Position numbers and translations under genes: made by a program
Shown: positions 55,900-57,926 of the stretch, piece after piece
Numbering within the stretch: position 1 is the stretch's first letter
Layout: every line of letters starts with the position of its first letter
Assembly (NCBI GenBank): GCA_905233565.1
Contig: CAJOCL010000013.1
Coordinates: 1-64,000 of the forward strand
Length of the DNA: 64,000 nt
Direction: 5' to 3'
Source: an uncultured Synergistales bacterium
Lineage (GTDB): Bacteria > Synergistota > Synergistia > Synergistales > Aminobacteriaceae
The notes under the pieces: generated by a model
What the model was told of the DNA's origin: nothing
What the model saw: the letters and a program-made list of their open reading frames with translations, nothing else
The model's database searches: none

Positions 55900-56256
55900 A
55901 TGCAGCCTGTTAGTATGATAATGTCGAACATGAACGTTGAGTCAATGACTCATCACGCGCCTAACGCACTTGCTGCGGCTCAGGATACGGGACAGAGTCA
56001 GGAGATTGTCCGCGAGGGTATAAGAATGATTCAGACTGTTCAGGCCAGCGAGGCAGCGGCTGAAATGCAGAGAGTTCACCGGAAAACTGAAAATGACGAA
56101 CGCGAAGGAAACGGCAGAAACGGTCAGCGAGATTCATTCGTCAAGTCAGAAGATAAAAAAGATAAAACAAAAAATAATAACAGCCTTGAAAATATTGATT
56201 CACCGTTAATCAGGGAGAATGCAAGAGTAAAAAAGCATGTAAGTTTTACGGCATAA
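55900..56256 (+). CDS. Hypothetical protein, last gene of the flagellar operon
   Basis: 118 residues, hydrophilic and Gln/Glu/Lys-rich, with a Met-rich N-terminus and a helical middle. A GGGGGG binding site lies before the ATG. Spacing (six bases from the DUF342 gene) suggests cotranscription. I do not recognise the family. Confidence 0.6.
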   Translation: MQPVSMIMSNMNVESMTHHAPNALAAAQDTGQSQEIVREGIRMIQTVQASEAAAEMQRVHRKTENDEREGNGRNGQRDSFVKSEDKKDKTKNNNSLENIDSPLIRENARVKKHVSFTA

Positions 56257-56282
56257 AAAGCATAAAAGGTGGTGAAATTGCA

Positions 56283-56462
56283 ATGTCAACAAATACATTT
56301 GACAGGCCTCTGGTGCTTGAAAAGGATGAGGACATAGAAAGATTCTGGCAGGTTATGAACTCAGAACCCAAACCGCTTTATATAGACAGGGAAGTTATAG
56401 AAGGAATGAGAAGGTGTGAGGAATTATTCGAAAAGAAAGTAAAAAATGCTCATTTGCATTAA
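56283..56462 (+). CDS. Small upstream ORF, possible antitoxin partner of GNAT
   Basis: 59 codons, a short acidic protein with Arg-Pro-Leu-Val-Leu near the N-terminus. AGGTGG lies about ten bases before its ATG. It overlaps the start of the acetyltransferase frame at 56447. Its stop lies five codons after an A AAA AAT heptamer at 56441-56447. It is too short for most gene finders. Small companion ORFs of this kind lie before GNAT toxin genes in many bacteria (family knowledge, not shown here). Confidence 0.5.
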   Translation: MSTNTFDRPLVLEKDEDIERFWQVMNSEPKPLYIDREVIEGMRRCEELFEKKVKNAHLH

Positions 56463-57061
56463 GCAAGATAATAAGTCAGGTCAGTGATGAAATTGCAAGG
56501 GAAATTCTGTCATCGTTTTCATGTGAATATGATAGAGATATTCAAAATTTCCTACAAAACAGAGCGATCGACTTTGAAAGATTATCGAAATCAAGGACAT
56601 ATTTAATCGTTGATGACAACCAGTTCAGCGATGATAATTTAGCTTTTGATGAGTTTACAATATACGGTTATGTTTCGTTGGCCGTTAAAGTCTTCACAGT
56701 TCCTGAAACGACATCAAACCGCAAAAGACAGCAGTTAGACGGCTTCAGCGCAAAAGAACACGGAGAACTTATCTCTAATTTTCCGTGTTATTTAATCGGT
56801 CAGCTTGCAAGAAATTCTAACGTCCCTAAAGAAAGCATAACGGGAACAGAAATATTAAGCATTGCTTACAGCATAATCGGCGAGGCTGTAAAAGCAGTAG
56901 GCGGAAGAAATATTTTAGTTGAATGCCGAAACACCGAAAAACTTGTGAAATTTTATCTTGACAACGGCTTTGACAGAGTATCTCAAGTCCCTGATGAAAA
57001 TCAGGCCATGATACAAATGATACGTAAAATTAATTTCGGGGGATACTCAGGCAATAAATAA
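56447..57061 (+). CDS. GNAT-type acetyltransferase without its own start codon
   Basis: The frame is open from 56420 to 57061, with family-like residues Leu-Gln-Asn-Arg-Ala-Ile-Asp-Phe-Glu-Arg, Ser-Arg-Thr-Tyr-Leu-Ile-Val-Asp, Tyr-Leu-Ile-Gly-Gln-Leu-Ala-Arg-Asn, and Val-Glu-Cys-Arg-Asn-Thr-Glu, as in GNAT acetyltransferases. Before 56678 (TTG) there is no ATG, GTG or TTG in frame, and a start at 56678 would cut off the first third of the fold. A -1 slip at the A AAA AAT site of the upstream small ORF would join the two into one protein of about 259 residues. Otherwise the gene is frameshifted, or starts at an ATA or ATT codon. Confidence 0.65.
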   Translation, partial: CSFALSKIISQVSDEIAREILSSFSCEYDRDIQNFLQNRAIDFERLSKSRTYLIVDDNQFSDDNLAFDEFTIYGYVSLAVKVFTVPETTSNRKRQQLDGFSAKEHGELISNFPCYLIGQLARNSNVPKESITGTEILSIAYSIIGEAVKAVGGRNILVECRNTEKLVKFYLDNGFDRVSQVPDENQAMIQMIRKINFGGYSGNK

Positions 57062-57074
57062 TTTATAAAAAACT

Positions 57075-57926
57075 ATGGACAAGGATTTATGGCTTTCTGA
57101 CCTTTGGGACGAATGGCTCATTTCTCCGGTCAAGTCCCGCAAAAACGCAGACGCAGAAACTTCAGGCCTCTTAATGGGAATGAAGCACAGTCACGGCATA
57201 TTCGCAACAAACAGGCTACGTACTGCACGACGTCTCACGGGGCCGGGAAAAGTCAGCCTCTGGCCTCTGACATCATACGCTGAAAAATTCACGCTCGGTA
57301 TATCAATGATAACACGGCCTAATCACAAGCCTTCAGTAAAATTTATCTGTCCTCCTGAAATCCTTAAAATACCCTCAGGCATAAAAACTTCATGGGCCTG
57401 GCTCAAAGGCTTATGGGGCAGCACGGGCGGCCTGTATTTCCCCAAAACGGGTTATTATCTAACGCTTATAATCTCAGACAAAGAAACTTCACGCCTAGCA
57501 CGCATAATTCTCGAACGTACAGGCTTGTCATGGAGCGAACACAGAAACGAGTTCACTCTCAGGAATCATGATGACATAATGACGTTTTTATACAATACAG
57601 GCATGACTTCAGGAGCTTTGGATCTTGAGGAAATGTCCGTTATACGTTCGGCACGGAACAAAGCGAATCTCGCAAGCAATTATGACGCCGCTAATATCGC
57701 CCGTTCAGTTAAGGCTGCGGGTGAACAGCTGAAATTAGCACGCAAAATTGTCAGCAGCGGGCTTCTTGATACCCTCCCTGAAAATCTGCAGGAAGTCATA
57801 AAACTGCGTATCGCCTGCCCTGATGAGACTTTAGATGGACTTGGAAAAAAGTTAGAGCCTCAGATTAAGAAATCTGCTGTAAAATATCGGTGGAGTAAAA
57901 TCCAAAAACTCACAGACAAATTATGA
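57075..57926 (+). CDS. whiA: DNA-binding protein WhiA
   Basis: 283 residues. An N-terminal LAGLIDADG-like fold is followed by the WhiA C-terminal helix-turn-helix region: Asn-Tyr-Asp-Ala-Ala-Asn-Ile-Ala-Arg-Ser, Leu-Pro-Glu-Asn-Leu-Gln-Glu, and Thr-Leu-Asp-Gly-Leu-Gly-Lys-Lys-Leu-Glu-Pro. WhiA is widespread outside sporulating bacteria; its role here may be cell division control. It lies 40 bases before pgk, a usual neighbour. Confidence 0.85.
   Translation: MDKDLWLSDLWDEWLISPVKSRKNADAETSGLLMGMKHSHGIFATNRLRTARRLTGPGKVSLWPLTSYAEKFTLGISMITRPNHKPSVKFICPPEILKIPSGIKTSWAWLKGLWGSTGGLYFPKTGYYLTLIISDKETSRLARIILERTGLSWSEHRNEFTLRNHDDIMTFLYNTGMTSGALDLEEMSVIRSARNKANLASNYDAANIARSVKAAGEQLKLARKIVSSGLLDTLPENLQEVIKLRIACPDETLDGLGKKLEPQIKKSAVKYRWSKIQKLTDKL

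What the first reader, a model, noticed from the sequence alone, without database searches (positions are those of the whole stretch)
56283..57061. Possible programmed -1 frameshift joining a small ORF to a GNAT acetyltransferase
The small ORF contains A AAA AAT at 56441-56447 in the phase needed for -1 slippage, just before its stop. The slip enters exactly the acetyltransferase frame, which has no standard start codon before 56678. The result would be a fusion of about 259 residues, while normal reading gives only the 59-residue protein. It could be a dosage control for a toxin and its partner. A plain frameshift mutation or sequencing error in the A run is the main alternative.
Basis: partly seen in the sequence, partly recalled or inferred. 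Interest (0 to 1): 0.7.

Follow-up and report, generated by a model that had tools for sequence, protein, structure and literature searches.

The report
Acetyltransferase toxin gene starting at AUU
The acetyltransferase gene is probably not made by ribosome slippage: it appears to start at a rare AUU codon hidden inside the small partner gene, a start found at the same place in relatives from three bacterial phyla.

Summary
The frameshift reading does not hold: the heptamer is expected by chance, has no stem-loop behind it and is not conserved. The cassette (small ORF + GNAT) is widespread. Of 102 distinct copies, 26 lack a canonical start at the N-terminus. Of the 24 whose frame is open there, 22 have ATT at the same aligned place inside the small ORF, one has GTT and one, at a contig end, neither. 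Over 18 clusters (75% identity) ATT occurs in 17, against 5.8 expected with the small peptide held fixed. Carriers are Acinetobacter plasmids, Bacillota genomes, viral contigs and Synergistales. The window has ATT ATT at 56423-56428, 6 nt after AAGGTG. The predicted fold matches GNAT toxins (GmvT, AtaT, TacT, KacT); no ribbon-helix-helix domain was detected in the partner. Best reading: an antitoxin-like gene with a toxin-like gene started weakly at AUU inside it, so that partner exceeds toxin. Initiation, toxicity and neutralisation are untested; half the clusters also have a canonical codon a little further in.

The parts
56266..56275 (+). AAGGTGGTGA, Shine-Dalgarno-like stretch of the small ORF
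   Evidence: read from the sequence
56283..56462 (+). small ORF, 59 aa, antitoxin-like partner; ATG start, TAA stop
   Evidence: orthologues in G002, G056, G054 and a paralogue in G000:C14; no NCBIfam match and only a sub-threshold Pfam match
56411..56416 (+). AAGGTG, Shine-Dalgarno-like stretch proposed for the acetyltransferase
   Evidence: AGGTG, 6 nt before the first ATT
56414..56419 (+). GTG TGA in the acetyltransferase frame: a canonical start closed at once by a stop; orthologues L016 and L017 have ATG there, the C14 paralogue GTG followed by an open stretch
56423..56428 (+). ATT ATT: proposed AUU start codon (first or second) of the acetyltransferase, inside the small ORF
56423..57061 (+). 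GNAT toxin-like acetyltransferase ORF, 211 or 212 aa from ATT, TAA stop
   Evidence: phrog_1758 acetyltransferase E 3e-32 (queried from 56444); AlphaFold2 pLDDT 89.9 (from 56426); Foldseek and profile hits to GNAT toxins
56441..56447 (+).
56468..56473 (+). ATA ATA just after the small ORF's stop, where G002 and the C14 paralogue have ATG; possible weak re-initiation site (rival)
56678..56680 (+). TTG, first canonical start codon in the acetyltransferase frame; would remove about the first 84 residues of the predicted fold
56954..56956 (+). codon of the invariant Tyr of the FYxxxGF-type motif (Y in 26 of 26 aligned members), aligned by the profile with the same motif of AtaT and GmvT

Best explanation
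A two-gene toxin-antitoxin-like cassette. The 59-aa partner is translated from a normal ATG. The downstream GNAT acetyltransferase is translated in the -1 frame from its own weak start, AUU at 56423 (or 56426), inside the partner gene behind AAGGTG. AUU initiation is inefficient, so the toxin-like enzyme would stay below its partner. By homology the enzyme would acetylate aminoacyl-tRNA and be bound by the partner. Shown by comparison: no canonical N-terminal start, a conserved ATT at a fixed place, purifying selection in the GNAT frame before any canonical start, and a GNAT-toxin fold. Inferred: initiation at AUU, the dosage effect, toxicity, substrate, neutralisation.
For: Of 26 copies without a canonical N-terminal start (of 102), 24 have an open frame at the site: 22 have ATT, L116 GTT, L109 neither. 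17 of 18 clusters at 75% identity have ATT; resampling synonymous codons of the small ORF gives 5.8, never more than 15 in 100,000 simulated counts. In the GNAT frame, of the eight codons before the ATT only -3 (TGA, P 0.003) exceeds the peptide-only expectation at P below 0.01; codons 0, +1, +3, +4, +5 and +6 do (P 0.0063 or less; +2 P 0.023). The ATT lies 25-31 codons before the conserved F, about where canonical members start. Apparent start swaps: L097 lacks the ATT and has ATG about 3 codons upstream; L100 lacks it and has GTG. pN well below pS between the small ORF's stop and the first canonical start: window-L016 0.26 against 0.72 over 71 codons; L057-L059 0.29 against 0.79 over 53 codons. 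44 Acinetobacter plasmid records hold the junction, 34 at 99% identity or more, 10 at 90-95%. AlphaFold2 puts two strands and three helices before TTG 56678.
Against: No expression data. In 9 of 18 clusters a canonical codon lies 12-21 codons before the F (for example ATG 14 nt after the small ORF's stop in L119, L169 and L116) and in 2 more at -4 or -6; 7, the window among them, have none before the F. An internal start losing some 10-13 residues is thus open for those 9. L109 is start-less without an ATT at the site and without a small ORF; its contig begins 174 nt before the F. L116 (and duplicates) has GTT, with an ATT two codons upstream. The closest orthologues (L016, L017) have an ATG 3 codons before the first ATT, so in the window's genus ATT-only use rests on the window and the contig-cut L019/L050, which also has an ATG just after its small ORF. 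Shine-Dalgarno conservation is largely explained by the small peptide. Where two or three ATTs were on offer the site was chosen with ATT in view. Clusters share ancestry; I took synonymous sites as near-independent because pS is high or saturated.
Confidence: 0.72

Rival explanations
1. Programmed -1 ribosomal frameshift at A AAA AAT makes a fusion of small ORF and acetyltransferase of about 259 residues.
For: Heptamer in the right phase and frame; -1 register kept in orthologues; other heptamers in 7 further members.
Against: Heptamer expected by chance; no stem-loop; no re-pairing heptamer in 19 of 27 members; no single-codon slip possible in L114; AAGGTG ends 24 nt before the heptamer, further than the roughly 10 nt that I recall for dnaX; orthologues L016 and L017 have their own ATG; no fused homologue among 102 copies.
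Confidence: 0.06
2. The acetyltransferase of the window has recently lost its start (GTG followed by TGA) and is a dying gene, or the MAG sequence is wrong at that base.
For: Orthologues have ATG there and the C14 paralogue GTG with an open stretch; decayed copies of the same cassette exist in this genome and in G002.
Against: About 212 open codons; the window branch is not clearly faster at amino-acid sites (pN about 0.09 against 0.08 and 0.07 for L016 and L017, by hand); L019/L050 has the same GTG TGA and the same ATT ATT; distant relatives without a canonical N-terminal start have the same ATT.
Confidence: 0.12
3. Start after the small ORF's stop: re-initiation at ATA 56468/56471 in the window, and at an internal ATG or TTG in the relatives that have one.
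For: ATG occupies this place in G002 and C14 and is the canonical candidate in L050; 9 of 18 clusters have a canonical codon 12-21 codons before the F; RefSeq uses such an ATG in L058.
Against: Would remove the predicted first strand (residues 7-11); 7 of 18 clusters have no canonical codon before the F; constraint in the GNAT frame begins at the ATT and ATT itself is kept beyond what the small peptide asks.
Confidence: 0.07

Closest known systems
GNAT toxin-antitoxin modules (GmvAT, AtaRT, TacAT, KacAT)
   Same: Two genes with a small partner; predicted fold and the Tyr motif as in the toxins
   Different: No ribbon-helix-helix/DUF1778 domain detected in the partner; weak sequence similarity; long -1 overlap and no canonical N-terminal toxin start in many members; acetyl-CoA P-loop motif (recalled) degenerate
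Genes with rare start codons: infC (ATT in E. coli, in PMC5472188), pcnB (AUU, cited title in PMC13009471), cvfC1 (AUU) and ccpN (AUA) of S. aureus (PMC13009471), sigR (GTC; GTT in 2 of 34 species; PMC5472188); passages of both papers read
   Same: Non-canonical start behind a Shine-Dalgarno sequence; for infC and sigR, repression by IF3; sigR sits in an operon with its inhibitor, which is made in excess
   Different: Here the start lies inside the partner's coding sequence, on mobile elements as well as chromosomes and in three phyla
phrog_1758 (phage protein family labelled acetyltransferase)
   Same: The window protein matches it at E 3e-32
   Different: Only a label; says nothing of the start or the partner
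Programmed -1 frameshift genes (dnaX, insertion sequences; recalled)
   Same: Overlapping -1 frames, A-rich heptamer
   Different: No conserved heptamer, no stimulator found, independent start available

Membership tests
Type II GNAT toxin-antitoxin (DUF1778 type) | GNAT fold close to known toxins | tested here: met
   AlphaFold2 pLDDT 89.9; ranks 1-37 of the 50 Foldseek rows shown are entries of GNAT toxins or 'bacterial toxin'; profile E 4e-11 to 9ilr
Type II GNAT toxin-antitoxin (DUF1778 type) | catalytic Tyr of the FYxxxGF motif | tested here: met
   Y in 26 of 26, aligned with the motif in AtaT and GmvT; that it is the catalytic one is recalled, supported by the Y144F and Y145F mutant entries
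Type II GNAT toxin-antitoxin (DUF1778 type) | acetyl-CoA motif R/Q-x-x-G-x-G/A (recalled) | tested here: inconclusive
   by eye: at most one Gly of the motif is kept, and the Acinetobacter-type rows lack it
Type II GNAT toxin-antitoxin (DUF1778 type) | ribbon-helix-helix (DUF1778) antitoxin | tested here: not met
   no NCBIfam match and only a sub-threshold unrelated Pfam match; model of helices only, pTM 0.33; a diverged domain cannot be excluded
Type II GNAT toxin-antitoxin (DUF1778 type) | toxicity neutralised by the partner | not testable with these tools
   needs plate assays
Genes with an AUU start | no canonical start at the N-terminus of a conserved ORF | tested here: met
   in 9 of 18 clusters a canonical codon follows 12-21 codons before the F
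Genes with an AUU start | AUU conserved beyond the constraint of the overlapping gene | tested here: met
   17 of 18 clusters against 5.8 expected
Genes with an AUU start | Shine-Dalgarno sequence at proper spacing | tested here: met
   match of 4-7 nt, 6-10 nt before the site in 18 of 18 clusters (searched at 3-12 nt); mostly explained by the small peptide
Genes with an AUU start | initiation shown at that codon | not testable with these tools
   no ribosome profiling or N-terminal peptides on hand
Programmed -1 frameshifting | slippery heptamer conserved in relatives | tested here: not met
   8 of 27 members have any re-pairing heptamer; the orthologue L016 has none
Programmed -1 frameshifting | downstream structure | tested here: not met
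   z -0.04; window only, one stretch of 89 nt

The most novel reading that the evidence does not exclude
A widespread mobile toxin cassette whose toxin is started at AUU inside the antitoxin gene on purpose: initiation fidelity (IF3, initiator tRNA) sets the toxin level, so any event that loosens start selection or changes the initiation machinery, such as phage takeover, would raise toxin against antitoxin. It would be a translation-quality sensor built into a toxin-antitoxin pair, easily missed because standard gene calls allow only ATG, GTG and TTG.
Probability: 0.15. Interest if true: 0.85.

Novelty: new variant of a known kind. Interest (0 to 1): 0.62.

Why it matters
Very few bacterial genes with non-canonical starts have been characterised by experiment (so stated in PMC5472188). 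A toxin-like gene with a conserved AUU start inside its partner would give a simple way to keep antitoxin above toxin. It would explain why the annotation of all six Acinetobacter plasmid copies read here begins the enzyme at an internal codon, and would make the effect of IF3 on a toxin-antitoxin ratio directly testable in laboratory strains.

Tried and rejected
Frameshift at A AAA AAT: rejected. Frame-restoring strain comparison: no other strain of this species was on hand; two other species keep the -1 register. Pfam, NCBIfam and PADLOC gave no family for the window proteins above threshold. A single-sequence PDB search with P0003 gave only weak unrelated hits; a profile was needed. An alignment with the wrong strand of L008 was useless. 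Searches in the orders of three locus genomes gave few copies, centres included: 8 of 250, 5 of 345 and 5 of 63 genomes. IF3 as a control: not found in this assembly with either half of the family but PF00707 present in 39 of 43 genomes of the genus search; my attempt to read infC starts worked for 1 of 6 loci (TTG or ATA there) and was dropped. Promoter and terminator scan: nothing convincing.

Rows dropped before counts: 14 short ORFs and 56 duplicates of 172. Of the 26 start-less copies, L038 (frame closed next to the F) and L031 (F not aligned, frame not open) were left out; L109 stays in the count as a miss. L105, L075, L089 and L090, which have an internal TTG at -20 or -21, were added to the ATT set by hand. 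In one search the second ATT was taken for the window and L124, the first; the count stayed 17 of 18.

Full report
The small ORF runs 56283-56462, and the acetyltransferase-like frame, -1 to it, runs to the stop at 57059-57061. In that frame there is a TGA at 56417-56419 and no ATG, GTG or TTG before 56678. A AAA AAT at 56441-56447 is in phase. It is unremarkable here: 29.7% of 5000 codon-shuffled small ORFs hold an in-phase X XXY YYZ, and 16 of 48 ATG-started window ORFs of 150 aa or more hold A AAA AAN. The RNA behind it is not structured beyond chance.

The orthologues point elsewhere. In the window's genus, 19 of 43 genomes hold a relative of the G002 acetyltransferase at E 0.001 or better, the window's own included. 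The two close full-length orthologues (G002: L008/L016; G056: L017) keep the same -1 register, but have an ATG inside the small ORF at the place where the window reads GTG TGA. A paralogue in the window's own genome (G000:C14) has GTG there, an intact small ORF and a decayed acetyltransferase. More distant cassettes of the genus mostly have a shorter overlap and a normal start.

A scan of GTDB genomes gave 11 loci. Four unrelated ones, from Metalysinibacillus jejuensis (L049), Phascolarctobacterium (L048) and two Clostridia/Clostridiales MAGs (L054, L055), lacked a canonical start at the N-terminus and showed ATT at the same place. tblastn with the L049 enzyme found 53 plasmid records, 46 of them Acinetobacter, and 21 phage records. 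All six Acinetobacter plasmids read (L057-L061, L172) have ATT AAA inside the small ORF, and their annotation starts the enzyme at an internal codon (locus position 864, 867 or 993, and 828 in L058). The junction is present in 44 Acinetobacter plasmid records, 34 at 99% identity or more and 10 at 90-95%, so sequencing error is no explanation there. Five scans of viral contigs added more. The copies read from named phages mostly have canonical starts.

All held loci were put on one alignment: 172 loci matched, of which 102 were distinct with an ORF of at least 130 codons, 14 were short and 56 were duplicates. Without ATG, GTG or TTG 18 to 45 codons before the conserved F there were 26. In two of these the frame is not open at the site (L038, L031). 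Of the remaining 24, 22 have ATT at the aligned site; L116 has GTT with an ATT two codons upstream; L109 has neither, no small ORF, and a contig that begins 174 nt before the F. Four further members with an internal TTG at -20 or -21 (L105, L075, L089, L090) have the same ATT. L097, inside the Acinetobacter-type branch, lacks the ATT and has an ATG about three codons upstream; L100 lacks it and has a GTG. That is what a start codon, and not a slippery site, would do.

A caution belongs here. Nine of 18 clusters have a canonical codon 12 to 21 codons before the F, that is some 10 to 13 codons after the ATT, two more have one at -4 or -6, and seven, including the window, have none before the F. 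For the nine, a shorter protein from that codon is possible.

Is the ATT only a by-product of a conserved Leu (A|TTA) in the small protein? The 27 sequences (23 start-less with a small ORF, four added) form 18 clusters at 75% identity. With each small peptide held fixed and its codons drawn anew from the cassette's own usage, ATT is expected in 5.8 clusters; it is found in 17, and 100,000 simulated counts never passed 15. Going along the -1 frame, codons -8 to -1 show no excess of their commonest codon at P below 0.01, except TGA at -3 (6 of 18 against 2.4, P 0.003; -8 has P 0.044). Codon 0 (ATT, P below 1 in 20,000) and codons +1, +3, +4, +5 and +6 do (P 0.0063 or less; +2 P 0.023). So constraint in the acetyltransferase frame begins at the ATT. 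The upstream AGG-type stretch is found 6-10 nt before the site in all 18 clusters, but the small peptide alone mostly predicts it, so it is permissive and not independent evidence. The clusters are related; I treated synonymous sites as nearly independent because pS between the pairs tested is 0.66 or more.

A slip is hard to place. A heptamer that re-pairs both codons occurs in 8 of 27 members, and A AAA AAT in the window alone; in L114 not even one codon can re-pair. In L119 and L070 a -1-frame TAA stands directly before the ATT, so entry must be at or after it. None of the 102 copies has the frame open far enough upstream for a natural fusion.

The stretch before the first canonical start is protein-coding. 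Between the small ORF's stop and TTG 56678, window and L016 differ at pN 0.26 and pS 0.72 (71 codons); for the Acinetobacter pair L057-L059 the figures are 0.29 and 0.79 (53 codons). By hand, the window's branch has pN about 0.09 against 0.08 and 0.07 for L016 and L017, so the gene is not visibly relaxed. In a tree of 76 members the 22 ATT-site rows need 7 changes (shuffled mean 19.4; at least 4 forced by well-supported branches) and fall in three regions. Whether ATT is ancestral or arose several times is not settled.

What the protein is. The window enzyme read from the second ATT is modelled with mean pLDDT 89.9; two strands and three helices precede the residue coded by TTG 56678. The first 37 of the 50 Foldseek rows shown are GNAT toxin entries (GmvT, KacT, AtaT, TacT, AtaT2 and one labelled bacterial toxin). 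A profile of 26 members finds 14 solved chains at E 0.001 or better, the best being 9ilr (4e-11), which names GmvT-GmvA. The Tyr of the FYxxxGF-type motif is invariant in 26 of 26. PHROG family 1758, acetyltransferase, matches at 3e-32; each of three Pfam acetyltransferase families matches only 1 of 26 members. The small protein has no family above threshold and its model is two helices with pTM 0.33, so the pair is not filed as a DUF1778-type GNAT module. PMC9177977 (passages read) describes GNAT toxins as DUF1778-associated and notes TA-like acetyltransferases outside that clade with antitoxins not yet identified, which is where this family would fit.

Precedent for the mechanism. PMC5472188 (passages): sigR of Streptomyces starts at GTC, is repressed by IF3, and its inhibitor RsrA is made in excess; 2 of 34 species have GTT at that place, which makes the GTT of L116 less odd. 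PMC13009471 (passages): S. aureus cvfC1 starts at AUU and ccpN at AUA; its reference list gives pcnB as a second chromosomal E. coli example of AUU. I found no paper describing an AUU start in a GNAT or other toxin-antitoxin pair in the listings (open-access library only; titles and abstracts seen, and passages of three papers).

Verdict. The best reading is an AUU-started toxin-like gene nested in its partner. In the window itself either of two ATTs may serve, and the case is less secure than in the Acinetobacter copies, because the nearest orthologues have an added ATG.

Noticed in passing
L004 1250-1429 (-) (G000:C14): Second copy in the same genome: small ORF intact (75% identical), acetyltransferase decayed by a deletion and stops. 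A partner kept after loss of the enzyme fits an antitoxin role.
   Followed up: partly
L013 234-480 (G002:C9); L014 (G006:C51); L009 (G003:C157): Further partial or decayed-looking copies of the cassette in the genus, typical of a fast-turnover element.
   Followed up: no
L057-L061, L172 (Acinetobacter plasmids): Public annotations start the acetyltransferase at an internal codon (864, 867, 993 or 828), cutting off the conserved N-terminus.
   Followed up: yes
L116 (duplicates L115, L121, L122): GTT instead of ATT at the site, with ATT two codons upstream directly after AGGTGA.
   Followed up: partly
L109 1-175: Start-less copy without ATT at the site and without a small ORF; the contig begins 174 nt before the F, so it may be cut or rearranged at its 5' end.
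   Followed up: partly
18 clusters, codon -3 before the ATT: TGA in the acetyltransferase frame in 6 of 18 against 2.4 expected; may extend the GGTGA pairing or close the frame upstream.
   Followed up: no
whole genome G000: No IF3 (PF05198, PF00707) found in this assembly, while 39 of 43 genomes of the genus search have PF00707; probably a gap in the assembly.
   Followed up: partly
window 57075-57926: WhiA-like protein (Pfam HTH_WhiA) directly downstream; chemotaxis-, sigma-factor- and FapA-like ORFs lie upstream (identified by eye).
   Followed up: no
window 55900-56256: 118-aa ORF without a Pfam family above threshold between the upstream operon and the cassette.
   Followed up: no
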